Source of the DNA: Agapetus fuscipes
Lineage: Eukaryota; Arthropoda; Insecta; Trichoptera; Glossosomatidae
NCBI GenBank assembly: GCA_951799405.1
Contig: OX637351.1
Coordinates: forward strand, 3,504,251 to 3,568,250
Length of the DNA stretch: 64,000 nucleotides
Reading direction: 5' to 3'
In this document: one piece after another, positions 4,583 to 44,140 of the stretch
Numbering within the stretch: the stretch's first letter is position 1
How the letters are laid out: every line of letters begins with the position of its first letter
The notes under the pieces: generated by a model
Told to the model about the DNA's origin: nothing
What the model saw: the letters and a program-made list of their open reading frames with translations, nothing else
Database searches by the model: none
Translations under genes and position numbers: made by a program

Positions 4583-4939
4583 ATCGAAATACATATCTAC
4601 ATCAAGGAGATGAAGACGCAGGCTGAATTTTCCCCTTTTGCACTTTGACTCTAATTTTTGGGGTCTGAATTTTTAATGTCCCTGAAATAAATTATAATTT
4701 TGTACCCTCCTAGGACTAATGGCGCTTCGAAACTTTCCTGACCATTTTTCATTTAAATAAATGCGGCTTTTTAGCAGTAAAAGGTTTTCAGTTTTTTTTT
4801 TATAATAAAAGGGGAACAATTAGAAAAGTGAAAAAAAAAAAACAATTTAATGGTAGTTTTAACATTTTGTCTTTGTACAGAAATAAGCCACAAAATTAAT
4901 TTATTCTTACAATGAGAATAACAACTATCTCATTGATCC
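4583..4939. other. Spacer, no gene seen
   Basis: AT-rich DNA without a recognised feature. Confidence 0.5.
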
Positions 4940-4943
4940 TCAA

Positions 4944-5182
4944 CTTACAGGTTGGTATGCGGCTGACCAAACATGCTGTAGAAAATGGTTCATTTTGCCA
5001 ATGTCACCGCTGTTTCAGGGAAGGTCGGCAGGAGTGGCAGGGTGTATGTCCGTTTGAGATTAGGTTTTTATGATGTAGGTTCACATGCGGCATGCGCAAG
5101 CGCGAACTTGTATGTGTCTGAGAATGCATGTAATGTGGATCCCAAATGTTTCATATACCTTCCATTCGCTATTCTTGCATAA
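4944..5182 (+). repeat. LINE-A 3'-end element
   Basis: It matches the unit from GGTTGGTATGCGG to its last third. The distal end is lost, and no GATTA tail is present. Confidence 0.8.
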
Positions 5183-26159: not shown

Positions 26160-26505
26160 CTCCACCGGTCGCTACAAAGCGTCAATACTTAAGCAAGACC
26201 CAGTTGATGTAAGGTTGGATGGACCCCTTTAGTGAACGGTAAAGGTTGTATGAATTTTTCAACCCAACGAATAGCATATTTGGAAATAAAAATGGTATTT
26301 TTTTGTGCTCCGCCGGGATCCAAATCCACAACCTTCCATTTACGAGTCCGCAATGTCGCCACTGGACTACGGACCGATCAAAGAAATGTCAACGAGACGC
26401 GGTGTTCCCAAGCGGTCACACATCCAAGTACTATCCGCGCCCAATGTTGCTTAACTTCGGTGATCGGACGAGAACCGGTGCTTTCAACATGGTATTGTCG
26501 TCGAC
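26160..26505 (-). repeat. 5S rRNA-headed SINE-2 composite
   Basis: On the minus strand a 5S-like segment (26505 to 26388) is followed about 10 bp later by the SINE-2 tRNA-like head and body. The order 5S then tRNA unit is the same as in the full-length composite at 56.9-57.5 kb. Confidence 0.85.
26388..26505 (-). rRNA. 5S rRNA-derived segment (SINE head, not a working 5S gene)
   Basis: About 118 nt on the minus strand align over their whole length with eukaryotic 5S rRNA: GTCGACGACAATACC at the start, CGGTTCTCGTCCGATCACCG and AAGTTAAGCAACATTGG in the middle, ACCGCTTGGGAACACCGCG near the end. Substitutions and its junction to a SINE show that it serves as a retroposon head carrying the 5S internal promoter. 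Confidence 0.85.
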
Positions 26506-27286: not shown

Positions 27287-27784
27287 ACGCAACTAAGCTA
27301 CACATACAGTGTAACTTCTTGCCTGCGTTATCCCCGAAGGGGTCGCATGTGGCGCTTCGGGACTTATTTATTTTTACAGGTAAGGGGGCCGGCCTTACAC
27401 CAACCACTTTCAGTTAAAGTGAGGGTTTCCCAGCTCCCGGGGGGGCTGGTTCTCATTTCTTGTGAAGGCTGAGTAAACCTTTGAGATCGAACCCTTGCTC
27501 TTGGCATGGAATGCAAGCATTCTACCAATTGAGCTATCGACCATTTTACGAGCTTGATCGTCGTCGCTAAAAAGCGCCAATTCTCAAGCAAGACCCAGTT
27601 GCTGTAAGGCTGGATGGACCTTTGGTGACCGGTCATTGGTAAAGGTTTTATGAATTTTTCAACCCGGCGAAGAGCAAATTTGAAAATATAAATGGTATAT
27701 TTTTTGTGCTCCGCCGGGAATCGAACCCACAACCTTCCCATTCAGAGTCCGCAGTGTTACCACTGAGCTACGGACCGGTCTACG
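27287..27784 (-). repeat. Dimeric SINE (SINE-2 plus SINE-1) inserted in a hammerhead motif
   Basis: Read on the minus strand: tRNA-like head with A box TAGCTCAGTGG and B box GGTTCGATTCCC, SINE-2 body, second head (TAGCTCAATTGG, GGTTCGATCTC), shortened SINE-1 body, and end at TTAGTTGCGTT. The direct repeat GACGAAA flanks it (27280-27286 and 27785-27791). This proves that the two-headed unit moved as one piece. Confidence 0.9.
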
Positions 27785-27870
27785 GACGAAACGTAGAGAA
27801 GATCGTTCTTCTCTTTCCACGCTCAGTAACATCCGTTTTTTTCATTCAAAAAAGTGTCTAACGACCGTAA
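27785..27870 (+). mobile_element. Right remainder of the split PLE tail
   Basis: It begins GACGAAACGTAGAGAAG and carries on with the GTAACATCCG and AACGACCGTAA blocks shared with 7.3 kb, until the LTR element L2 begins. Confidence 0.6.
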
Positions 27871-28343
27871 TGTTATGTAAATATAAATATTGAAATAAGT
27901 ATGGATAGTTATAGTTATAAGAATCCTCAAAAGTATTGGTAGGTAAGATCGATAATTATGTATAAGTGTAGAATTCTCTAGGCTAAGTAGGTATTTGTTA
28001 TAATTATAGGAATACTGTATTGCATTGGTAGGTAGGATTTTGGTTGTATCTCTAGGTAGTACGTGAAGCGTCGAGAAGTAATAATTACTCTGGAACCGTC
28101 TGGCGACTTTAGTTCTGGATCATACTGCTCTGAAGAGTATAAAGGTGCGAATGGCCTGCAGAGCGGGGCAGTATCATAGCGACTAACAAACACATCGAAG
28201 CCATCTGATCAGTGAACCGAAACCAATGGAATAATCGAGAAAGTAGTGTGAAAATAAATTTTGTAACTGTGTAAAATAAATAACTATTGAAGAAGACCTG
28301 TGTATTTTTAATTTGAAGACAATTGAACCCTAATTTCGTAACA
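27871..28343 (+). repeat. Left LTR of element L2
   Basis: 473 bp, TG...CA. By eye it equals the rejoined right LTR, which suggests recent insertion. Confidence 0.93.
28138..28144 (+). promoter_or_regulatory. TATA-like box in the L2 LTR
   Basis: TATAAAG in a GC-richer surrounding about 205 bp before the LTR end. The same sequence is present in the right LTR at 37830-37836. A plausible core promoter for the element's transcript. Confidence 0.5.
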
Positions 28344-28345
28344 AT

Positions 28346-28360
28346 TGGCGTCAGGTGCGG
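28346..28360 (+). promoter_or_regulatory. Candidate primer-binding site of element L2
   Basis: TGGCGTCAGGTGCGG begins two bases after the left LTR, the expected position. I cannot assign the tRNA. Confidence 0.5.
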
Positions 28361-29019: not shown

Positions 29020-31335
29020 ATGGCAACTAAAGTGAACGTCAAGGACCTCAAAGTCACTGAGCTTAAAAATGAGCTTCTGGAGAGGGACCTGGAGACCTCA
29101 GGAGGAAAGGCAGCCTTACAAGCACGCCTCATAGAGGCCTTGGAACAGTCAGGCGAAGACCCGGCATATTTTGTCATGGCGTCTGGAGGGGACCGCGCCT
29201 TGGACGAGCTAAATATCAGCATCAACAGTAACCTGACAGGACTGAAGACTGAGATGGCTGACAACGCCAAGACCCTGGAGGAGAAGATGGCTGACAACGC
29301 CAAGACCCTGCAGGAGAACCTGACGGACCTGAAAGTGGAGATGGCTGAAAACGCCAAGGCCCTGCAGGAAGACCTCGCCAACATGAAAGAGAAGATGAAC
29401 GAGAATCTCACAACCCTGAAGGGAGAAATGGAGGAGAAGATGACAGCCCTGAAGGGGGAAATGGAGACTCGGATGTCAAATCTGGAGGTACATCTGCGTG
29501 CCGAGCTGGCCGACAAGGGCCAGATGGAGTCCACCAGAATATCCCCCAAAGGCCTTCACGACGAGACCGACCAGGGATGCTCAACTCCAACCAGGGTCAC
29601 TAGAGGGGATGATGACCCTTCGCTGGCGAAGCACAACCTCCCGACCTTCGACGGGAAGACGTCGTGGGAGGAGTATTTGACCCTCTTTGAAACGGCTGCC
29701 ATGATGGGAGCCTGGAGCCAGCAGAAGAAGGCTTCGGTTCTCAGCCTGTCGCTCCGAGGAGACGCTCTCAGGGTTCTGCAGGCCATACCCCTGGACAACC
29801 GTGGTGACTTTGGGCAGCTGAAGCAGCGCTTGGATATGCGCTATGGCCACAAGTGCCTGGGGCAGCTGTACAGGTCACAGCTGAACACAAGGGTGCAGAA
29901 GCCCAACGAGAGCCTCCAGGAGTTTGAGATGGACATCGTCCACCTAGTACGAGACGCTTACCCGACATTCCCTGATGACATCTGCGAGAGCTTGGCAGTG
30001 GACAAGTTCCTGAACGGATTGAGAGAATGGGAGACGCAGCAAGCAGTGAAGCTGGCTCTTCCGAAGACGTTGAACGAGGCGCTAAGCCGAGCTCTCGAAT
30101 TTGAGGCTGTCAAACAGTCCATCAGGGGCCACGCCAGGGTTTGTGCAATCAAGGCAGAGGAGGTCAAACTACCTACAACCGAGGAAACAATAGAAAAAGT
30201 GCTGCAGCAACTGGAGCCAACGAGACAGAAGGCGCACTGCTGGACGTGTGGCCAGCAAGGACACCTGAGCGCGAGGTGCCCAAAGTCTCAAGGACCGGAG
30301 AAATTGGAAGACGACCGCAAGGATGTAGAGACCACCATGGAGATGAACAAACGGCTGAGGAAACAGCTCCAGGATGCCGAGAGAAAGGTCAAAGTCATGG
30401 AGACGGAGAACAGGCAGCTGACGAAGAACTTGGCCAGCAGTGAAAGGGTCCGGCGAACAGCGGAGGCCGAGAGGGACGAGTTGCACGAGACTGTGCTGAG
30501 CCTGGAGAGACAGAACAAGGGGCTTAAGACTAAGCTCCAGCAGCTGGAAGCTGGGCAGGGGCCCAGGACGAAGGACACCATCGCCAACCTGGTGTCCAAG
30601 ATCAGCAACACCAAGGAGGCGGGAGCTCGAATGAAGGATAACCACCGGCCAACTCAAAGAGCAAAGTGGTCAAACAATGACCAGCCCGCCCAGAGAGTAC
30701 AAAAATGCGTCGCATCCAAAGAAGCGCCCCTGTTTGAGACGTTCTGGAGCAAGGTGCAAGAGGGACAGAAGATTCGCCATGGGGTGACCACAGAAGTCCA
30801 CAAGGACTTATTTGAGGTCACTGGGGACCACACACTGGCATGCAGTGTACCGGAAGATCTAGATATGTCTAGAGGAATTGCACGGGTCTTCCGATACAAA
30901 TTCGGAGAACCGCAACCCTCGAGCAGCCCGCAAGGAAGAGCTCTGAGACTACCGAAGGGGCGTCAACAAGCATACTGCCTGGTTGTCCCGGATTCCAGCA
31001 ACCTGGAAGAGGACTACAAGGCATTGTGGGACGGCCTTGTTGAGCTGCGTGACTACATGTTGGAGGATCAGCAGGCGCGTCTGGCAATACCGAAGATGGG
31101 TGGCGGCCGCGCTAATCGAGACTGGCGGATAATCCGGAGTATGATTGAAGCAGTGTTCTCGGGAGTCGGCATCAGCGTCATGGTGTGCTGCGAGCAAGCG
31201 CAGCCGAGAGCCAGTGGGGAGAAATCCGTGGACTGCCACTTCTTCCTGACCACAGGGTGTCGACGTGGATCAGCATGCCCCTACCTACACAGAGTCAAGA
31301 CTGTTCCGGGACGAAACAGTCTAGGTGGGGGGTAG
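29020..31335 (+). CDS. Gag polyprotein with SAP, CCHC, macrodomain and CCCH finger
   Basis: The 771 residues are read in order as follows. A SAP-like N-terminus (about 7-41; SAP motifs usually bind DNA) is followed by a coiled-coil with repeated heptads (about 60-165) and a Ty3-type Gag core (about 205-345). A zinc knuckle has C407-x2-C410-x4-H415-x4-C420, and a second coiled coil covers about 430-512. A macrodomain (about 590-724) and a C-terminal CCCH finger (C739-x7-C747-x5-C753-x3-H757) complete it. The macrodomain resembles the TARG1/OARD1 class: D596 in the DLF motif, DMSRGIARVFRYKFG (615-629) and AIPKMGGG (689-696) before W702. The positions equivalent to the catalytic Lys and Asp of TARG1 appear to be P657 and A698. 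I infer ADP-ribose binding without deacylation, or a structural role. The ATG at 29020 follows an A-rich leader, and the stop abuts the 3' LTR. Confidence 0.85.
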   Translation: MATKVNVKDLKVTELKNELLERDLETSGGKAALQARLIEALEQSGEDPAYFVMASGGDRALDELNISINSNLTGLKTEMADNAKTLEEKMADNAKTLQENLTDLKVEMAENAKALQEDLANMKEKMNENLTTLKGEMEEKMTALKGEMETRMSNLEVHLRAELADKGQMESTRISPKGLHDETDQGCSTPTRVTRGDDDPSLAKHNLPTFDGKTSWEEYLTLFETAAMMGAWSQQKKASVLSLSLRGDALRVLQAIPLDNRGDFGQLKQRLDMRYGHKCLGQLYRSQLNTRVQKPNESLQEFEMDIVHLVRDAYPTFPDDICESLAVDKFLNGLREWETQQAVKLALPKTLNEALSRALEFEAVKQSIRGHARVCAIKAEEVKLPTTEETIEKVLQQLEPTRQKAHCWTCGQQGHLSARCPKSQGPEKLEDDRKDVETTMEMNKRLRKQLQDAERKVKVMETENRQLTKNLASSERVRRTAEAERDELHETVLSLERQNKGLKTKLQQLEAGQGPRTKDTIANLVSKISNTKEAGARMKDNHRPTQRAKWSNNDQPAQRVQKCVASKEAPLFETFWSKVQEGQKIRHGVTTEVHKDLFEVTGDHTLACSVPEDLDMSRGIARVFRYKFGEPQPSSSPQGRALRLPKGRQQAYCLVVPDSSNLEEDYKALWDGLVELRDYMLEDQQARLAIPKMGGGRANRDWRIIRSMIEAVFSGVGISVMVCCEQAQPRASGEKSVDCHFFLTTGCRRGSACPYLHRVKTVPGRNSLGGG
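31324..31335 (+). promoter_or_regulatory. Candidate polypurine tract of element L2
   Basis: GGTGGGGGGTAG ends at the gag stop and touches the right LTR. It sits where plus-strand priming is expected and overlaps the last codons. Confidence 0.55.
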
Positions 31336-31373
31336 TGTTATGTAAATATAAATATTGAAATAAGTATGGATAG
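31336..31373 (+). repeat. Right LTR of element L2, first 38 bp
   Basis: It repeats 27871-27908 and is cut by the L3 insertion after GGATAG. Confidence 0.92.
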
Positions 31374-33321
31374 TGTAGAGTTCCCCCCCTGATGAAAAGA
31401 TGGAGTAGTGGACGAGTGGTCCATCTTGGGTATTCTGGAAATGGTGTTATGGTATGGTGGTACAGGCGAGCCAAAGGCCGTGCTCCTGCCTCCATAACAT
31501 TTAAATGATGAGGTCTCCATAGTTCTCCAAATGGTGTGATCTTCCCTCTCAGAGAGATTGTTGAAGACCTTTCCTTGGTCCATGATGAAGGTGAAGGTAG
31601 ATCAGAGATCTTGGAACGCTGGTAGATGCTGGTACTGCTCGTACTGGAACTGAAAATGCTGGTGTGCTGGGAATCCCTCGTTGATGAAGAAAGATCAGAG
31701 ATCTTGGAAGGTGGAAGTTCCCTCGCTGCCTCCTCGAAGGATCATCGTCGTAGTTTTGGCCATTTGTGTGATCGTCTAGCTAAGGTTAGGACTGCTCGTC
31801 GTGTGGAAGATTATGAAACAGAACGTTGTGTGATTTTTTGTTTTACCGTTTCAAAATCTACTTTAGTGGCAAACCCAAATTCGTTATCGTTTGGTGTGGA
31901 ACATACGCATTTTCTAACTAAATTGTAAATTCAAAATTATAATTAAAAAGCTTACGAGATTTAAGTTACGTGTATTGTAAAATGACTATATGATATTAAA
32001 ACCGATTTTAAAACAAGTGACTTTAATTTTTAATGGGATTTTGTTTTCTGTGAAATTACTAGAACCCGCTCTGGTAAGGTCACGGCGTATAGAAAAAAAA
32101 CACGGCAGTCAACGTATTCAAGGGCGTATACAAAATAGGGAACAAGGAAAAAGGGGGGACGTAGATCGCGAAAAGTTACTTGATGTGTTAATTTTTGTTA
32201 GTCTTTTTATTTGACAGATTACATAAATTTACAAAATAACATTATAATAACAATATGAATAAATTACATTGCGTCTAAATATATTACGTATAAAATATTT
32301 ATAATAATATGAAAAATCTACCTCCACCCACCCCATAATTATTTTAATTAAAAATCCCACCTCTAAGTAGAAAATCTGCCTGCTAGCTCCAATGGAGAAG
32401 TCGGGGACTTGCGACCCCGAAGTGAGATTAACCGATCGGTTTACAAGCTTGACGCTCTCTCTCTTCTACCAAAGAATCGTCACAGGACTTTAGCACGCTA
32501 ATTTTTGGAAAAAGGAAAGGAAGTCTTGTCACCAGCTTCGACTAAGTGTTACCCCACTGGGTCGGATATTTCAGCATTCCCGTTACCAAAACTTAACGCG
32601 CGCCTACTCCATACTCTATTCCAAGCTGCTTTTGTTAGGGAAGACAGCTTCTAATTTACCCCATCATTCCACCAAAATTCGCAATACCATGGCACCGTCT
32701 GATGCTCAGCAAGTCCGGCCAAGTAGACCCGAGACAGATGCCAAAATAAAGAAAACCTGGCAAAACAATAATTGTGGAAATATCTACTCCATAACCTGTT
32801 CCTGGTGCACCTCAATATCGGGAAAACCCGATATGGGTGGAAGACCCGAAGCACAGACTACGAAAGACCTTTCCACATCCCCATAAATAATGCCTTAACC
32901 AATCGAAATTCGAATGGTAGAAAAATAATTGTGCAAACCGCTTTACTCACGGACAGGAACACGCCACTGGTTTTAAGTTTGTATTAATGTCGCGACATTA
33001 GTTATTTTTAATGCAATCAGCCTAATTATTTTCTCCCGGCAGCATCTCAGGTCCATTTTCAGCTCCATCTCCACACAAACACCCACAAATCAAATATTAA
33101 ACAGCAATTTCAGATTTTATCTAGAAGAGACGCGTCACTCCCGGGAAACAGATCGAAACTGAATTCAACCCAGCAATGGAGTTGTCAAAGGACAGCTCAA
33201 GGTTTTTTTTATGAGGGTACCTTTTTTTGTTCCAAGTTTTTAAGTACCATAGAAAGATATATTATACTTTGTACAGAATTACGGATGTATAAACGAATAT
33301 AGATGGAGTCAGATCTTTACA
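31374..33321 (-). repeat. LTR of element L3 (3' LTR in element orientation)
   Basis: 1,948 bp. It differs from the other L3 LTR by one T in a T run as far as I can see. Reading frames of up to 100 codons inside it are duplicated in the other LTR and show no domains. Confidence 0.93.
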
Positions 33322-33330
33322 TTCCCCCCT
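33322..33330 (-). promoter_or_regulatory. Polypurine tract of element L3
   Basis: On the minus strand AGGGGGGAA directly precedes the LTR start TGTAAAG. Confidence 0.7.
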
Positions 33331-33872
33331 AATTTTATGGAAGGTTTTCAAGAGTTTACGAATGGAAAAGTTTTCAGAAAATTCTTTAGTTAAAGATATG
33401 AAAAAAATAATTAATGCATCAATATTAATTCCGAATTGAGCTCGCGCACAAATATTTGTATCATTTTACTTCATTTATGTTTATCTTCGAACGAATTTGT
33501 AGAACAATCGATATTTTTATTTTCCATCACTGGATTTCCATGCTTTGGTTACCGCACTGCTCTGTTGTGTCGTTCGCTCTGTCCGCTGCATTCCTCCTTC
33601 CAATATCTCACACACATCTGGAAGCGCTTAGGGTTGCGTCAGTCCCCACTCCCCTCGCTCTTCTCCCCCCTAAAAGTCTTACCCCGTGGACCATTTCAAC
33701 ATAATATTATGCGTGTACTTTTGTGGGCGAGAATTTAAAATAAAAAATGATATATGCACTTGTGTTCATAAATCAGTAATGTTTATTTTCCAAATCAGAA
33801 CATATTATCATCGCATTGGCACAACGTATTATATCAATTGAAGGTAATAGTCATAAATAAAATCAGACAAAA
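33331..33872. other. L3 interior, no ORF recognised
   Basis: Non-coding part between gag and the 3' LTR of L3. Confidence 0.5.
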
Positions 33873-34577
33873 TTATTTTTCAAATGCAATCGTGTTCAAT
33901 TCTTTTAAGGCGTTGACCTTCTCCTTCCCATTTCTTTTTAACCGTCGCCGCAACTTTGTCCTTCGTCTCCGCTTGGTGTAGTCAGCATTCGTCTTTCGTG
34001 GACATGACTCTTCATGTTTAGGACATCTGGAATCCTCTGCGGTTGAGTTCACTCTAGCTCTCGTGATTTCCTCTATGTCTTGTATCATCCTCAGGTATTC
34101 AGCGGCTTCACAGGCTGTAGATTTTCCGGTCACACTCCACATTCTCCATACATCGTCTGGATAATGTCTCATCACGTCTTCAACAGCTTGGGTTTTATCC
34201 TGGGGTGGTATCACGGATTGCGACAGCATGTAATGCTCGCAGAAATGTTCCACCATATCTTTGTTTCCTTGAGGGTCCCATTTTCCTGTTAATATTTTTA
34301 TCCTCGCCTCTCGCTGCTCAATATATCCCCAATATCGTTTCAAAAAGTCTTTCTTGAATTCTGCAAAACATGCCCATTTTGAACGATAAATATCCGCCCA
34401 TAGCCGAGCATTTCCAATCAAACATTCATCAACAACCTGCATTGCACGTCCCCCGGCATCCGTTAGTCTTATAAATGTTTCCAATTCTTCTAAGAACCGT
34501 AAAGGGTATTCGTCAAACCCCGCGAATATCGGCCTCTCAATTTTCAATGGAAGAATCGTCTCCATCTGTTTTTCCAT
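33873..34577 (-). CDS. Gag-like protein of element L3
   Basis: 234 residues on the minus strand. The N-terminal part (about 10-100) has the form of a retrotransposon Gag/capsid-type domain: PIFAGFDEYPLRFLEELETF, then ARLWADIYRSKWACFAEFKK and a KRYWG block. The C-terminus (about 196-225) is strongly basic, with runs of Lys/Arg, and could bind RNA. No complete CCHC knuckle is present, only scattered Cys (SRCPKHEESC). No protease or polymerase follows in the remaining 0.5 kb of interior, so the element is presumably mobilised in trans. The start ATG is the first of the frame after about 1 kb of leader. Confidence 0.72.
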   Translation of the reverse strand: MEKQMETILPLKIERPIFAGFDEYPLRFLEELETFIRLTDAGGRAMQVVDECLIGNARLWADIYRSKWACFAEFKKDFLKRYWGYIEQREARIKILTGKWDPQGNKDMVEHFCEHYMLSQSVIPPQDKTQAVEDVMRHYPDDVWRMWSVTGKSTACEAAEYLRMIQDIEEITRARVNSTAEDSRCPKHEESCPRKTNADYTKRRRRTKLRRRLKRNGKEKVNALKELNTIAFEK

Positions 34578-35631
34578 TTATTTTAAAAAAAATGCCTTCC
34601 AAAAGCTTCCAAATTACGACAAATTCTGTTGCACCTCAAAACAACACAAAGCAAATACAATCACTCAATGATCACTTATGACGTTCGTTTTTCGAACTTA
34701 ATAAGATATATTATGTAAGTCACTCAAGTATATTATTATTTCTAATAAACTAAACGCACGTATATCACAAAATCACTTCACCCAAAATATAAAAACACTC
34801 AACACTTAAAATATATTTTGTTCACATGAAAACCTATATCACTCACACGAAAGCAAAAAAATAAACTATAACTCTCACTTGAAACGACGCAAGTTATAAA
34901 ATTTTATCACATTGGCTCGGGATTTATGGTTTTTAAAACAAAAACGATAATATTATTTGAACTAAGGGTTTCTTTCTTACGCGTTTAAACACATCTTGCA
35001 TTCATCTTAATATTGAAATAGTATTCCTAAAACAACAAATCCTTGTTTCAAACAAGTTCAAAACCTTTTTCAAATGAAGGAAGGCAATAAATTATTTCCA
35101 AAGTGGAAATAATGAACAAAAAAAAACCCTTGCCTCGACCCCAGACCAAAATTCTAAAATCACACAAAAAAATCGACACATGTGTCGCAGCAAGATCAGG
35201 GCCGCGCGCGTAAAAAAGCAGCCCTAGGCGATTTTAACCAAATTTAAAATACACTCTTTTTTTCTCGCGAAGTTTTAGATTTCATAAAATTAAATGCGAC
35301 TTTACAAATCAACTATTAAATTTTTAAGAAAGATACGTTAACATTTTACTCGTGAAGTTTTCAATTAAAGAAATTTAAACGCGATTTTACTAAACTATTA
35401 TTGAGTTTTTTAGATACGTTAAACATTTAAAATACGTTATTCTTTTACTAGTTAAATTTTCGCTTTAAGAAGTTAATACTCGATTTTACAATTTATTATT
35501 AAATTTTTATCAAAAATTAATTCAGTAACCGTGACATTTTCGATTTAAGATATTTAAAAGGGATTTTACTGATTTACTATTGAATTTTTAACAAAATACG
35601 CATGTTCCACTTGTCTAACCAAACGATCCTT
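34578..35631. other. L3 leader, AT-rich, no gene seen
   Basis: Untranslated leader of L3. Several near-repeats of TTTTACTNGTTAAATTTTCG type occur at 35270-35560, suggesting old tandem amplification. Confidence 0.5.
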
Positions 35632-35645
35632 GGTCACGGATACCA
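35632..35645 (-). promoter_or_regulatory. Candidate primer-binding site of element L3
   Basis: On the minus strand TGGTATCCGTGACC begins two bases after the 5' LTR end. Confidence 0.55.
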
Positions 35646-35647
35646 AC

Positions 35648-37596
35648 TGTAGAGTTCCCCCCCTGATGAAAAGATGGAGTAGTGGACGAGTGGTCCATCT
35701 TGGGTATTCTGGAAATGGTGTTATGGTATGGTGGTACAGGCGAGCCAAAGGCCGTGCTCCTGCCTCCATAACATTTAAATGATGAGGTCTCCATAGTTCT
35801 CCAAATGGTGTGATCTTCCCTCTCAGAGAGATTGTTGAAGACCTTTCCTTGGTCCATGATGAAGGTGAAGGTAGATCAGAGATCTTGGAACGCTGGTAGA
35901 TGCTGGTACTGCTCGTACTGGAACTGAAAATGCTGGTGTGCTGGGAATCCCTCGTTGATGAAGAAAGATCAGAGATCTTGGAAGGTGGAAGTTCCCTCGC
36001 TGCCTCCTCGAAGGATCATCGTCGTAGTTTTGGCCATTTGTGTGATCGTCTAGCTAAGGTTAGGACTGCTCGTCGTGTGGAAGATTATGAAACAGAACGT
36101 TGTGTGATTTTTTGTTTTACCGTTTCAAAATCTACTTTAGTGGCAAACCCAAATTCGTTATCGTTTGGTGTGGAACATACGCATTTTCTAACTAAATTGT
36201 AAATTCAAAATTATAATTAAAAAGCTTACGAGATTTAAGTTACGTGTATTGTAAAATGACTATATGATATTAAAACCGATTTTAAAACAAGTGACTTTAA
36301 TTTTTAATGGGATTTTGTTTTCTGTGAAATTACTAGAACCCGCTCTGGTAAGGTCACGGCGTATAGAAAAAAAACACGGCAGTCAACGTATTCAAGGGCG
36401 TATACAAAATAGGGAACAAGGAAAAAGGGGGGACGTAGATCGCGAAAAGTTACTTGATGTGTTAATTTTTGTTAGTCTTTTTATTTGACAGATTACATAA
36501 ATTTACAAAATAACATTATAATAACAATATGAATAAATTACATTGCGTCTAAATATATTACGTATAAAATATTTATAATAATATGAAAAATCTACCTCCA
36601 CCCACCCCATAATTATTTTAATTAAAAATCCCACCTCTAAGTAGAAAATCTGCCTGCTAGCTCCAATGGAGAAGTCGGGGACTTGCGACCCCGAAGTGAG
36701 ATTAACCGATCGGTTTACAAGCTTGACGCTCTCTCTCTTCTACCAAAGAATCGTCACAGGACTTTAGCACGCTAATTTTTGGAAAAAGGAAAGGAAGTCT
36801 TGTCACCAGCTTCGACTAAGTGTTACCCCACTGGGTCGGATATTTCAGCATTCCCGTTACCAAAACTTAACGCGCGCCTACTCCATACTCTATTCCAAGC
36901 TGCTTTTGTTAGGGAAGACAGCTTCTAATTTACCCCATCATTCCACCAAAATTCGCAATACCATGGCACCGTCTGATGCTCAGCAAGTCCGGCCAAGTAG
37001 ACCCGAGACAGATGCCAAAATAAAGAAAACCTGGCAAAACAATAATTGTGGAAATATCTACTCCATAACCTGTTCCTGGTGCACCTCAATATCGGGAAAA
37101 CCCGATATGGGTGGAAGACCCGAAGCACAGACTACGAAAGACCTTTCCACATCCCCATAAATAATGCCTTAACCAATCGAAATTCGAATGGTAGAAAAAT
37201 AATTGTGCAAACCGCTTTACTCACGGACAGGAACACGCCACTGGTTTTAAGTTTGTATTAATGTCGCGACATTAGTTATTTTTAATGCAATCAGCCTAAT
37301 TATTTTCTCCCGGCAGCATCTCAGGTCCATTTTCAGCTCCATCTCCACACAAACACCCACAAATCAAATATTAAACAGCAATTTCAGATTTTATCTAGAA
37401 GAGACGCGTCACTCCCGGGAAACAGATCGAAACTGAATTCAACCCAGCAATGGAGTTGTCAAAGGACAGCTCAAGGTTTTTTTTATGAGGGTACCTTTTT
37501 TTTGTTCCAAGTTTTTAAGTACCATAGAAAGATATATTATACTTTGTACAGAATTACGGATGTATAAACGAATATAGATGGAGTCAGATCTTTACA
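35648..37596 (-). repeat. LTR of element L3 (5' LTR in element orientation)
   Basis: 1,949 bp, partner of 31374-33321. Confidence 0.93.
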
Positions 37597-37600
37597 ATAG

Positions 37601-38035
37601 TTATAGTTATAAGAATCCTCAAAAGTATTGGTAGGTAAGATCGATAATTATGTATAAGTGTAGAATTCTCTAGGCTAAGTAGGTATTTGTTATAATTATA
37701 GGAATACTGTATTGCATTGGTAGGTAGGATTTTGGTTGTATCTCTAGGTAGTACGTGAAGCGTCGAGAAGTAATAATTACTCTGGAACCGTCTGGCGACT
37801 TTAGTTCTGGATCATACTGCTCTGAAGAGTATAAAGGTGCGAATGGCCTGCAGAGCGGGGCAGTATCATAGCGACTAACAAACACATCGAAGCCATCTGA
37901 TCAGTGAACCGAAACCAATGGAATAATCGAGAAAGTAGTGTGAAAATAAATTTTGTAACTGTGTAAAATAAATAACTATTGAAGAAGACCTGTGTATTTT
38001 TAATTTGAAGACAATTGAACCCTAATTTCGTAACA
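37601..38035 (+). repeat. Right LTR of element L2, remaining 435 bp
   Basis: It continues the LTR from 31373 and matches 27909-28343, ending TTTCGTAACA. Confidence 0.92.
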
Positions 38036-38407
38036 GTTATCATAATTTAAAATCTTTAACGTTGTCTACCTTTTGAAATTCAAAACGTAGAACTATGTTA
38101 CCCACCTCAGACCATGGGCATATTCTACTGAGGACCATGGCCTACCCTTAATGGTTCTCTCTAGGGTCGAGGTCACCCCTTCATTATTTCTGAGACGTCT
38201 TAGGGTCACCAGCCACCCCCGGGGGCAGTTTGATTTGAATTGAGGGTTGAATTACGGATTTACAGGGTTACAGTTTTTGTTTTGGGGCTTGGAAAGTTTT
38301 GGGAATGTATCGACTGTAAGAATGTATGAGTCGTATAGAACCAAAGGTGGAAATTTAGATTTTTTAATGATATAAATGTTGGGAATATCAGGGAATCATT
38401 TTCTGAC
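38036..38407. other. Spacer, no gene seen
   Basis: Unique-looking sequence without a defensible frame. Confidence 0.45.
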
Positions 38408-42190: not shown

Positions 42191-42287
42191 GTAAGACTGG
42201 CGTTTTTAGGCGTACTTTTAGCGGTTCTGGACATTATTTTTTGTTTAATTTATAATTTTTGAATGAATTCAAACAAAACACTGTTTA

Positions 42288-42532
42288 ATGATAAAGGAAA
42301 AACAGTTTGGTTTTCGATTACGTGAGTATATTTTTATAAACCACAACCGGTTTCGCAAACATCCGTTCGCATCATCAGGTGGATTAATTTATCCACCTGA
42401 TGATGCGAACGGATGTTTGCGAAACCGGTTGTGGTTTATAAAAATATACTCACGTAATCGAAAACTAAACTGTTTTTCCTTTATCATTAATGATGAACGA
42501 TTACAAAGTTAATGCCTCTACAATCAATAAAA
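42288..42532 (+). mobile_element. Foldback retroposed unit carrying a hammerhead motif on each strand
   Basis: The arms 42287-42384 and 42391-42488 are exact reverse complements except for one base, with a 6-base centre. The 245-bp unit ends A-rich and is flanked by the 13-bp direct repeat AAAACACTGTTTA (42275-42287, 42533-42545). Confidence 0.85.
42388..42442 (+). ncRNA. Hammerhead ribozyme motif (right arm of the foldback)
   Basis: Stem I is CCAC/GTGG (42393-42396, 42431-42434), extended by TTTAT/ATAAA across a 3-base bulge. Core box 1 CTGATGA is at 42397-42403, then an extra T. Stem II is GCGAAC/GTTTGC (42405-42410, 42415-42420) with one G-U pair and loop GGAT. Core box 2 GAAA is at 42421-42424. 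Stem III is ACC/GGT without loop and H17 is T at 42430. The loopless palindromic stem III could form only between two molecules. The left arm carries the mirror copy on the minus strand (core boxes at 42372-42378 and 42351-42354). Confidence 0.65.
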
Positions 42533-42721: not shown

Positions 42722-44140
42722 TGTTTTTAGGTACACTGCAAGCGGTTTCAGGCGTATGTTTACCGCTTTAAAGCATAGTTTTTGCGGTTACAGGCTCACT
42801 TTACTATTTTCAGGCGCGATAAGTGTTTTCAAGCGCACTTTAAGTGTTTTCACGCACACTGTTAGTAGTTTCAGGCCTACTTTCGTTGATTTCAGGCACA
42901 CTTTTAGTGTTTTCAGGCGTACTTTTACTGTTTTCACGCACACTGTTAGTAGTTTCAGGCCTACTTTCGTTGATTTCAGGCACACCTTTAGTGTTTTCAG
43001 GCGTACTTTTACTGTTTTCACGCACACTGTTAGTAGTTTCAGGCCTACTTTCGTTGATTTCAGGCACACCTTTAGTGTTTTCAGGCGTACTTTTACTGTT
43101 TTCACGCACACTGTTAGTAGTTTCAGGCCTACTTTCGTTGATTTCAGGCACACCTTTAGTGTTTTCAGGCGTACTTTTACTGTTTTCACGCACACTCTTA
43201 GTAGTTTCAGGCCTACTTTCGTTGATTTCAGGCACACCTTTAGTGTTTTCAGGCGTACTTTTACTGTTTTCACGCACACTGTTAGTAGTTTCAGGCCTAC
43301 TTTCGTTGATTTCAGGCACACTTTTAGTGTTTTTAGGCGTACTTTTAGTGTTTTCAGGCGTACTTTTACTGTTTTCACGCACACTGTTAGTAGTTTCAGG
43401 CCTACTTTCGTTGATTTCAGGCACACCTTTAGTGTTTTCAGGCGTACTTTTACTGTTTTCACGCACACTATTAGTAGTTTCAGGCCTACTTTCATTGATT
43501 TCAGGCACACTTTTAGTGTTTTTAGGCGTACTTTTAGTGTTTTCAGGCGTACTTTTACTGTTTTCACGCACACTGTTAGTAGTTTCAGGCCTACTTTCGT
43601 TGATTTCAGGCACACCTTTAGTGTTTTCAGGCGTACTTTTACTGTTTTCACGCACACTGTTAGTAGTTTCAGGCCTACTTTCGTTGATTTCAGGCACACT
43701 TTTAGTGTTTTCAGGCGTACTTTTACTGTTTTCACGCACACTGTTAGTAGTTTCAGGCCTACTTTCGTTGATTTCAGGCACACCTTTAGTGTTTTCAGGC
43801 GTACTTTTACTGTTTTCACGCACACTGTTAGTAGTTTCAGGCCTACTTTCGTTGATTTCAGGCACATTTTTAGTGTTTTCAGGCGTACTTTTACTGTTTT
43901 CACGCACACTATTAGTAGTTTCAGGCCTACTTTCATTGATTTCAGGCACACTTTTAGTGTTTTTAGGCACACTTTTAGTATTTTTCGGCTTACTTTCAGT
44001 GTTTTAAAACACATGTTTAGTGTTTTCAGGTGTACTTTTACTGTTTTCAGGCTCACTTTCAATGATTTCAGGCGTATTCTCACTGTTTTCACGCACACTT
44101 ATAGTGTTTTCAGGTGTATTTTTACTGTTTTCTTGCACAA
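42722..44140. repeat. Satellite: 21-bp monomer in 84-bp higher-order units
   Basis: Monomers of the form GTTTTCAGGCGTACTTTTA are arranged four at a time (84 bp). There are 13 higher-order units between about 42886 and 43970, two of them five monomers long (105 bp, starting near 43306 and 43495). Diverged monomers form both edges, and an isolated one lies at 42196-42226. Because 21 and 84 are multiples of three and stops are absent, long frames are open on both strands (up to 498 codons). This is a by-product, not evidence of a protein. Confidence 0.93.

What the first reader, a model, noticed from the sequence alone, without database searches (positions are those of the whole stretch)
30760..31335. 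Macrodomain and CCCH finger fused to an LTR-retrotransposon Gag
Seen: the single 771-residue Gag of element L2 continues past its CCHC knuckle and a coiled coil into a segment (about 590-724) with the landmarks of a macrodomain, closest by eye to the TARG1/OARD1 class (DLF motif with D596, DMSRGIARVFRYKFG, AIPKMGGG before W702). A CCCH finger (C739, C747, C753, H757) follows. Known: macrodomains bind or remove ADP-ribose, and CCCH fingers bind RNA. Inference: the element captured a host gene and may use it to bind or counter ADP-ribosylation-based (PARP/ZAP-like) defence or to package RNA. The two TARG1 catalytic positions look replaced (P657, A698), which favours binding or decoy over catalysis. 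Both LTRs look alike, so the gene arrangement is young and under recent use.
Basis: partly seen in the sequence, partly recalled or inferred. Interest (0 to 1): 0.87.

Follow-up and report, generated by a model that had tools for sequence, protein, structure and literature searches.

The report
Retrotransposon carrying macrodomain and myosin pieces
A mobile element in an insect-like genome makes one protein that joins its own coat protein to a shortened copy of a host myosin tail and to an ADP-ribose-type domain shared with the polymerase of its partner element, hinting that ADP-ribosylation matters to insect retroelements.

The parts
27871..28343 (+). 5' LTR of element L2 (TGTTATG...GTAACA, 473 bp)
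   Evidence: repeat with 37597-38035, 439/439 identical; start and end read; 8 of the 18 3' LTRs measured are also 473 bp
28346..28360 (+). putative primer-binding site TGGCGTCAGGTGCGG, 2 nt after the LTR
   Evidence: read from sequence; primer tRNA not tested
29020..31335 (+). single ORF of 771 aa: Gag - myosin-like coil - macrodomain - CCCH
   Evidence: domains
29038..29145 (+). SAP domain of Gag (residues 7-42)
   Evidence: Pfam PF02037 E 3e-8
30238..30285 (+). CCHC zinc knuckle (residues 407-422)
   Evidence: Pfam PF00098 E 1.6e-3, 18.9 bits, below its cut-off of 20.8; above it in relative L049, E 8e-6
30291..30676 (+). captured coil: intron-free, internally shortened copy of a host myosin II heavy-chain tail, standing where PR-RT-RNaseH-IN stand in the partner
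   Evidence: no match in the five long pol-type loci L049, L050, L051, L052, L058; Myosin_tail_1 E 7e-10, 37.9 bits, cut-off 38.1; matches to exons a, b, c, d, e of G000:C13:6393368-6414727 in order; 199 exact copies of a coil 36-mer
30677..31335 (+). Pol-derived tail, 659 bp (Pol C-terminus of the partner element)
   Evidence: 100% identical to L049 4347-5005, the end of a 1422-aa Pol frame
30775..31194 (+). TARG1/OARD1-class macrodomain (residues 586-725), K84->P657 and D125->A698
31222..31290 (+). CCCH zinc finger (residues 735-757; C739, C747, C753, H757)
   Evidence: Pfam zf-CCCH E 1e-3 / 2e-4; CPSF30 fingers E 2e-3
31323..31332 (+). purine-rich stretch AGGTGGGGGG (one T), probable polypurine tract, inside the last codons
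   Evidence: read from sequence next to the 3' LTR start; not tested
31336..31373 (+). first 38 bp of the 3' LTR, before the nested insertion
37597..38035 (+). rest of the 3' LTR after the nested insertion (its first 4 bp ATAG repeat 31370-31373)

Best explanation
L2 is a gag-only (non-autonomous) Ty3/gypsy element derived from a family whose Pol ends in integrase - TARG1-like macrodomain - CCCH finger. SHOWN by sequence: the Pol core is missing; Gag is joined through an intron-free, shortened piece of a host myosin II heavy-chain mRNA to the Pol C-terminus; tails of gag-only and pol-bearing copies form mosaics of near-identical and clearly different blocks. INFERRED: the hybrid arose by template switching of reverse transcriptase between element RNA and a packaged myosin mRNA; the mosaics are recent exchange of the same kind; L2 supplies its own Gag and RNA and borrows RT and integrase from the macrodomain-bearing partner. 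INFERRED, weaker: the macrodomain no longer hydrolyses ADP-ribose and acts with the CCCH finger as a binding module for ADP-ribosylated protein or nucleic acid, giving the particle or the integration complex a foothold or a shield on ADP-ribosylated chromatin or RNA. The ancestral form (sequence kept in beetle relatives and in the errantivirus-like lineage of this genome) looks like a working ADP-ribose hydrolase. Odds: origin about 0.93, mobilisation in trans about 0.85, binding module about 0.45.
For: Tail identity to Pol C-terminus: L2 30677-31335 = L049 4347-5005 at 100% while the gag part is 90%; L049 Pol pieces give PR, RT, RNase H, integrase H2C2+rve, SH3-like C-end, CCCH. Myosin: pairwise DNA matches of 82% over 101 bp to one exon (E 8e-25), 77.5% over 80 bp to another (E 4e-15), 75% over 52 bp and 79% over 38 bp to two more, same gene, same order; frame continuous across splice junctions b|c and d|e; 0 of 1000 shuffles reached the scores for exons c and d. 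Exchange: tails of L050, L073, L074, L075, L076 differ from L2 by 20% in the first 150 alignment columns and 0-0.4% after that, L071 by 20% and 0-0.7%; coil-bearing L068 is 4.7% from L050 but 15.3% from L2 in that first block. Constraint: macrodomain dN/dS L2/L058 0.17 (0.08-0.30), L2/L067 0.10 (0.03-0.24), L2/L057 0.17 (0.04-0.47). Catalysis: 14 of 14 C-terminal-form rows of this genome (L2 included) lack both K84 and D125, 6 of 6 internal-form rows and 2 of 2 host OARD1 rows keep both (L030 and L045 left out by me, identical strings collapsed); three of three beetle proteins keep both. Passenger: 133 of 150 scored tails lie in frames of 709-834 aa, gag-fusion size, one in a 1422-aa frame (counted).
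Against: No call tests ADP-ribose binding; 12 of 25 near-invariant TARG1 positions are changed, so binding may be lost as well. dN/dS may reflect selection in the Pol context, because tails are exchanged; other pairs have wide intervals (L2/L072 0.16, 0.03-0.65; L067/L057 0.25, 0.06-0.76). Coil dN/dS (0.34-0.38) has intervals that reach above 1, and two coil comparisons with L072 failed in the script. Exon e alone is within shuffle range (150 of 1000), and a piece of the other myosin gene (C9) also scores above all shuffles (112, against 132 for exon c and 88 for exon d), although its DNA match is poor (E 0.022). The partner is inferred from shared LTR (96-97%) and tail, not from an experiment; gene conversion could also make mosaics. 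The window copy has an imperfect target duplication (GTAA/GTTA).
Confidence: 0.6

Rival explanations
1. The tail in L2 is kept for cis reasons only: it holds the probable polypurine tract and gives homology for recombination with the partner. The open frame through the macrodomain is a by-product, maintained in the Pol context and copied back into L2.
For: The purine-rich stretch lies in the last codons; tails of pol-type and gag-only copies are near-identical over most of their length, so constraint in Pol would explain the dN/dS values.
Against: A cis role would not need 659 bp in frame with Gag; 150 of 150 scored tails have no stop and 134 of 150 lie in frames of 700 aa or more, though these copies are young; in the coil, found only in copies without pol here, the gaps between copies are 3 or 9 nt.
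Confidence: 0.3
2. Counter-defence: host PARP-type ADP-ribosylation restricts insect retroelements; forms with intact residues (internal form, beetle form) strip the mark, and the form of this genome with lost residues acts as decoy or shield.
For: Intact K84/D125 in the errantivirus-like lineage and in beetle relatives; TARG1-like domains sit at two separate Pol positions; recalled: macrodomains of alpha- and coronaviruses counter PARPs.
Against: No test of host restriction; loss of both residues in the abundant C-terminal form argues that hydrolysis is dispensable there.
Confidence: 0.3
3. Integration tether: after integrase, the macrodomain-CCCH guides the integration complex to ADP-ribosylated chromatin (for example DNA breaks), as chromodomains do in chromoviruses (recalled); in L2 it is a leftover.
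For: Position directly after the integrase C-terminal domain in L049; binding without hydrolysis suits a tether.
Against: In the internal form the domain lies before integrase. 16 of 18 3' flanks begin with RTAY (counted): a short sequence preference, which says nothing for chromatin marks.
Confidence: 0.25
4. Chance or artefact: a coiled-coil composition match misread as myosin, or a mis-assembled copy.
For: Coiled coils give biased matches; the PDB myosin hit is only E 0.0017; the paralogous C9 myosin also scores above shuffles.
Against: DNA-level matches to separate exons of one gene in order, a poor DNA match to C9 (E 0.022); 199 exact copies of the coil 36-mer, reversed control 0.
Confidence: 0.02

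Closest known systems
TARG1/OARD1 (C6orf130) macrodomain hydrolase
   Different: Both catalytic residues replaced; 12 of 25 near-invariant positions changed; part of a retroelement protein.
Maize Bs1 retrotransposon with pieces of three host genes
   Same: LTR element that carries host-gene pieces; a hybrid reading frame (passages of PMC13317346).
   Different: Here the host piece is a myosin II tail and a Pol-derived macrodomain-CCCH tail follows; 199 exact copies of the coil 36-mer.
Crocodilian ERVs with captured KIT-ligand or nectin3 mRNA
   Same: Host mRNA captured by a retroelement, in the nectin3 case at the cost of env (passages of PMC4299795).
   Different: Vertebrate ERVs, separate ORFs; here an in-frame linker inside a Gag fusion.
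Fish epsilon-like ERVs with macro-domain ORFs
   Same: Retroelement with a macrodomain protein (one sentence citing Basta et al. 2009, passage of PMC4977317).
   Different: Described there as additional ORFs in vertebrate ERVs; here domains embedded in Ty3/gypsy Pol and in a Gag fusion, TARG1 class.
Gag-only non-autonomous LTR elements (TR-GAG type; name recalled)
   Same: LTRs, probable PBS and PPT, one gag ORF, no pol.
   Different: Gag is extended by host- and Pol-derived domains.

Membership tests
TARG1/OARD1 macrodomains | macrodomain alpha/beta/alpha fold closest to TARG1 | tested here: met
TARG1/OARD1 macrodomains | significant sequence homology to TARG1 | tested here: met
   (E 2.2e-10); profile search lists OARD1 proteins
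TARG1/OARD1 macrodomains | catalytic K84 and D125 (roles recalled) | tested here: not met
   P657 and A698 in L2; met in the internal form L053 and in beetle relatives. So: homologous to TARG1, not filed as a TARG1 hydrolase
TARG1/OARD1 macrodomains | binding and hydrolysis of ADP-ribose | not testable with these tools
   needs an assay
CCCH zinc fingers | C-x7-C-x5-C-x3-H with family score | tested here: met
   above the cut-off when the tail is scanned alone (21.7 vs 20.5 bits), slightly below in the whole protein (19.3)
Ty3/gypsy LTR elements | pol order PR-RT-RNaseH-IN in the related pol-bearing copy | tested here: met
   L049 pieces; LTR 96% identical to L2's
Gag-only non-autonomous LTR elements | LTR pair, gag ORF, no pol between LTRs (nested insert set aside) | tested here: met
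   L057 likewise has LTRs 1127-1540 and 4602-5016 with no pol frame between
Gag-only non-autonomous LTR elements | mobilised in trans by a partner | tested here: inconclusive
   inferred from shared LTR and mosaic tails, no assay
Retroelements with captured spliced host mRNA (Bs1-like) | intron-free host exons joined in frame | tested here: met

The most novel reading that the evidence does not exclude
ADP-ribosylation is a front line between insects and their LTR retroelements: insect Ty3/gypsy lineages carry TARG1-class domains at two separate Pol positions, first as working erasers (still so in an env-bearing errantivirus-like lineage and in beetle relatives), later turned into non-catalytic readers, which a gag-only passenger then placed on its own coat protein beside a captured cytoskeletal myosin coil.
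Probability: 0.35. Interest if true: 0.88.

Novelty: new variant of a known kind. Interest (0 to 1): 0.73.

Why it matters
Macrodomains of RNA viruses are known PARP antagonists (recalled); a like module built into Pol of insect retroelements would extend that conflict to genomic parasites. The case offers a natural series: intact residues inside Pol, intact in beetle relatives, lost at the Pol end in this genome, lost on Gag. It also shows, exon by exon, how a passenger element is put together from three sources, and gives a mosaic signature between passenger and partner that can be looked for elsewhere. Pfam's Macro model missed the L2 domain and scored the internal-form domain below its cut-off (13.4 vs 22 bits), so more may lie unseen.

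Tried and rejected
Rejected: host macrodomain captured by Gag (the tail is Pol's). Rejected: chance coil. Phylogeny cannot settle the origin: internal form and C-terminal form as one clade are not rejected (p 0.37), internal form with the host OARD1 gene is rejected (p 0.02), C-terminal form with the host gene is not (p 0.14); one or two captures stay open and this host's own gene is not shown to be the source. The protein search with the tail in the full-Gag length range gave 0 hits among 538 candidates; the 198-aa tail gave 1 hit among 180, P0001, 95% identical, on a 996-bp ENA contig. Viral contigs: 0 relatives for the L2 domain; the single hit for the internal form, L065, matched only query residues 57-77 and I saw no macrodomain in the 400 bases read, without a further test. 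The second myosin gene (C9) gave no convincing DNA match; my notebook first guessed the muscle/non-muscle types the other way round, and the type remains an inference. Papers: ten searches listed no macrodomain in an insect LTR element and no myosin capture; four of the lists were capped (20 of 3,867; 12 of 7,583; 12 of 32; 12 of 32), and most subscription papers are not held. Passages read: PMC4977317, PMC8195603, PMC5982333, PMC4299795, PMC13317346; all other papers only as search listings. Basta et al. 2009 is known to me here only through PMC4977317.

Full report
What is there. The window lies in a 618-Mb, 148-contig eukaryotic genome. Tandem TTAGG repeats begin at the first base of contig C1; an insect host is my inference from that, from the baculovirus-F-like env of relative L053 and from beetle relatives. 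Element L2 has a 473-bp 5' LTR (27871-28343), one ORF of 771 aa (29020-31335) and a 3' LTR that starts right after the stop codon at 31336. That LTR is interrupted by a nested LTR element (31374-37596, flanked by a 4-bp ATAG duplication) and resumes at 37597. No pol-like frame lies between the LTRs outside the nested element; the other frames of 120 aa or more over gag are antisense.

Catalytic positions. TARG1 K84 and D125 (roles recalled) align with P657 and A698. In the 70-row alignment 68 of 69 other rows have K and 68 of 69 have D; the exception is P0001, a 95% relative of L2. Of 25 positions that are at least 90% conserved among the other rows, L2 keeps 13 (among them LF of the DLF motif, D40, the GIA loop, P118, G123) and has changed 12. 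Loss of hydrolysis is likely; retained binding is possible but unproven.

Where the tail comes from. A search of the own genome with human TARG1 letters (150 of 995 candidates scored) returned host OARD1-like exons (43-45% identity) and many retroelement ORFs. C-terminal form: in the pol loci fetched at length the frames have 1422 (L049, L050), 1424 (L058), 1445 (L051) and 1453 aa (L052), with the macrodomain near the C-terminus; that it follows integrase is shown by Pfam for L049 and read by eye in L042-L044 and L046. Internal form: Pol frames of up to 1253-1266 aa with the domain between RNase H and the integrase zinc-binding domain, shown by Pfam for L053. L053 also has a gag and two adjoining frame pieces that match Baculo_F at E 5e-14 and 4e-36, so it is errantivirus-like; its domain matches human TARG1 at E 1.5e-20. 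L2's last 659 bp are 100% identical to the end of the 1422-aa Pol of L049, whose LTR is 96% identical to L2's; the upstream gag part is 90% identical. L2 has none of L049's PR, RT, RNase H and integrase.

The coil is a second capture. The 386 bp between Gag and tail (30291-30676) have no match in the five long pol-type loci L049-L052 and L058. They match, in order, five exons of one host myosin heavy-chain gene (C13:6393368-6414727, located with Pfam Myosin_tail_1): exon a 75% over 52 nt, the end of exon b (about 17 nt), exon c 82% over 101 nt (E 8e-25), then after a skip exon d 77.5% over 80 nt (E 4e-15) and exon e 79% over 38 nt. Frames run through b|c and d|e without intron. In 1000 shuffles of the L2 coil the scores for exons c and d were never reached; those for a and b were reached 3 and 5 times, e 150 times, the skipped exon 192 times; a 139-aa piece of the other myosin gene (C9) was also never reached (score 112, against 132 for exon c), as expected of a paralog, but its DNA match is poor (E 0.022). 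The coil of relative L057 scores higher than that of L2 against exons b, c, d and e and lower against a. That the gene is the non-muscle type is inferred from its short exons and from Myosin-10/-9 as best PDB hits.

Numbers and age. An exact coil 36-mer occurs 199 times and an exact macrodomain 36-mer 826 times, reversed controls 0. Of the 11 coil sites on C1, 10 have the macrodomain 36-mer 653 bp downstream (my comparison of the two tables, both complete for C1). In one search (150 of 1400 candidates scored) all 150 tails lack stops; 133 lie in open frames of 709-834 aa, one in 1422 aa, 16 in shorter ones (counted). The LTRs of the window copy are identical over 439 bp. A second gag-only subfamily (L057, L067, L072) has coils about 92% identical to L2's, so the fusion predates the latest burst.

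Mosaics with the partner. Against L2, the tails of pol-type L050, L074, L075 and L076 (1422-aa frames) and of L073 (no coil found) differ by 20% in the first 150 alignment columns and by 0-0.4% in the rest; L071 (no coil found) by 20% and 0-0.7%. Coil-bearing L068 and L072 resemble L050 in that block (4.7% and 5.3%) more than L2 (15.3% and 19.3%). Such mosaics are expected from template switching between co-packaged RNAs and are the main evidence that L2 travels with the macrodomain-bearing family; gene conversion in the genome is not excluded.

Selection. By Nei-Gojobori counting with bootstraps over codons, macrodomain dN/dS is 0.17 (0.08-0.30) for L2/L058 at dS 0.98, 0.10 (0.03-0.24) for L2/L067, 0.17 (0.04-0.47) for L2/L057, 0.16 (0.03-0.65) for L2/L072, 0.25 (0.06-0.76) for L067/L057 and 0.24 (0.15-0.45) for L058/L052; for the internal form L053/L032 0.08 (0.05-0.17) or 0.11 by the cut, at dS 1.6-2.0, near saturation; gag capsid part L2/L057 0.21 (0.12-0.35); RT-RNase H of L050/L058 0.05. 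L2/L049 and L2/L050 have no synonymous change. The CCCH piece is too short to judge (0.31-0.97). The coil gives 0.34-0.38 with intervals reaching above 1. Because tails are exchanged, constraint cannot be assigned to the Gag context with certainty.

Evolution of catalysis. In this genome all 14 C-terminal-form rows (L2 and gag-only or partial copies among them) lack both residues (K to P or R, D to A); all 6 internal-form rows and both host rows keep them (L030 and L045 left out by me, identical strings collapsed). Beetle proteins P0007 (Pyrocoelia), P0010 (Brassicogethes) and P0118 (Acanthoscelides; names) group with the C-terminal form (100/99 support) and keep both residues; P0007 begins with a Pol-like stretch, P0118 has a full CCCH finger, P0010 a finger with the first cysteine replaced (by eye). 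Hence the C-terminal form was probably catalytic and lost this on the branch to the present host.

Mechanism, with odds. Origin by loss of the Pol core and gain of a spliced myosin piece: about 0.93. Mobilisation in trans: about 0.85. A binding rather than hydrolytic role of the tail: about 0.45. Whether the target is a defence mark, chromatin at the integration site, or RNA is open; the rivals list what would decide.

Known or new. Host-gene capture in LTR elements is known (maize Bs1, crocodilian ERVs), as are macrodomain ORFs in fish ERVs (passages). TARG1-class domains inside Ty3/gypsy Pol at two positions, one kept on a Gag fusion with a myosin coil, did not appear in the listings of ten full-text searches (some lists capped). 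I rate it a new variant of a known kind.

Noticed in passing
window 31374-37596: Nested LTR element inside the 3' LTR of L2: LTRs of about 1948 bp (31374-33321, 35648-37596) identical apart from one base in a T-run, TG...CA ends, 4-bp ATAG target duplication; a gag-like ORF runs antisense (33873-34577, Retrotrans_gag E 0.01, below its cut-off).
   Followed up: partly
L053 (G000:C30:6579000-6586000): Errantivirus-like element whose Pol carries a TARG1-like domain with K84 and D125 intact between RNase H and integrase; the env-like frame of this copy is in two pieces.
   Followed up: partly
P0012: A TARG1-like protein of a fish virus (Scale drop disease virus) falls within the vertebrate OARD1 group of the tree, perhaps a separate viral capture of the same gene.
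   Followed up: no
BFVD: The best viral fold match of the L2 tail model is a predicted VP8 protein of Kadipiro virus (E 2e-11), which hints at TARG1-like domains in a mosquito-borne segmented RNA virus (biology recalled).
   Followed up: no
G000:C31:266644-353238 and C52:33000: Host OARD1-like exons occur at least three times, two of them 86 kb apart in opposite orientation on C31.
   Followed up: no
window 42822-44139: Tandem array of 42-bp units (31 copies) with a 189-bp period also reported.
   Followed up: no
window 42285-42490: Directly abutting inverted repeat, 103-nt arms, 98% complementary.
   Followed up: no
L049 near 5006-5060, also L006 and L013: Some copies start the 3' LTR with a roughly 40-bp duplication of the LTR start, perhaps a strand-transfer scar.
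   Followed up: no
window 27867-27870 and 38036-38039: The window copy has GTAA/GTTA instead of a perfect 4-bp target duplication; L057 has a perfect CTAT; 16 of 18 3' flanks seen begin with RTAY.
   Followed up: partly
window 26299-26379 and 27700-27780: Two 83% alike short repeats that look to me like a tRNA-derived SINE head (not scanned with the tRNA tool).
   Followed up: no
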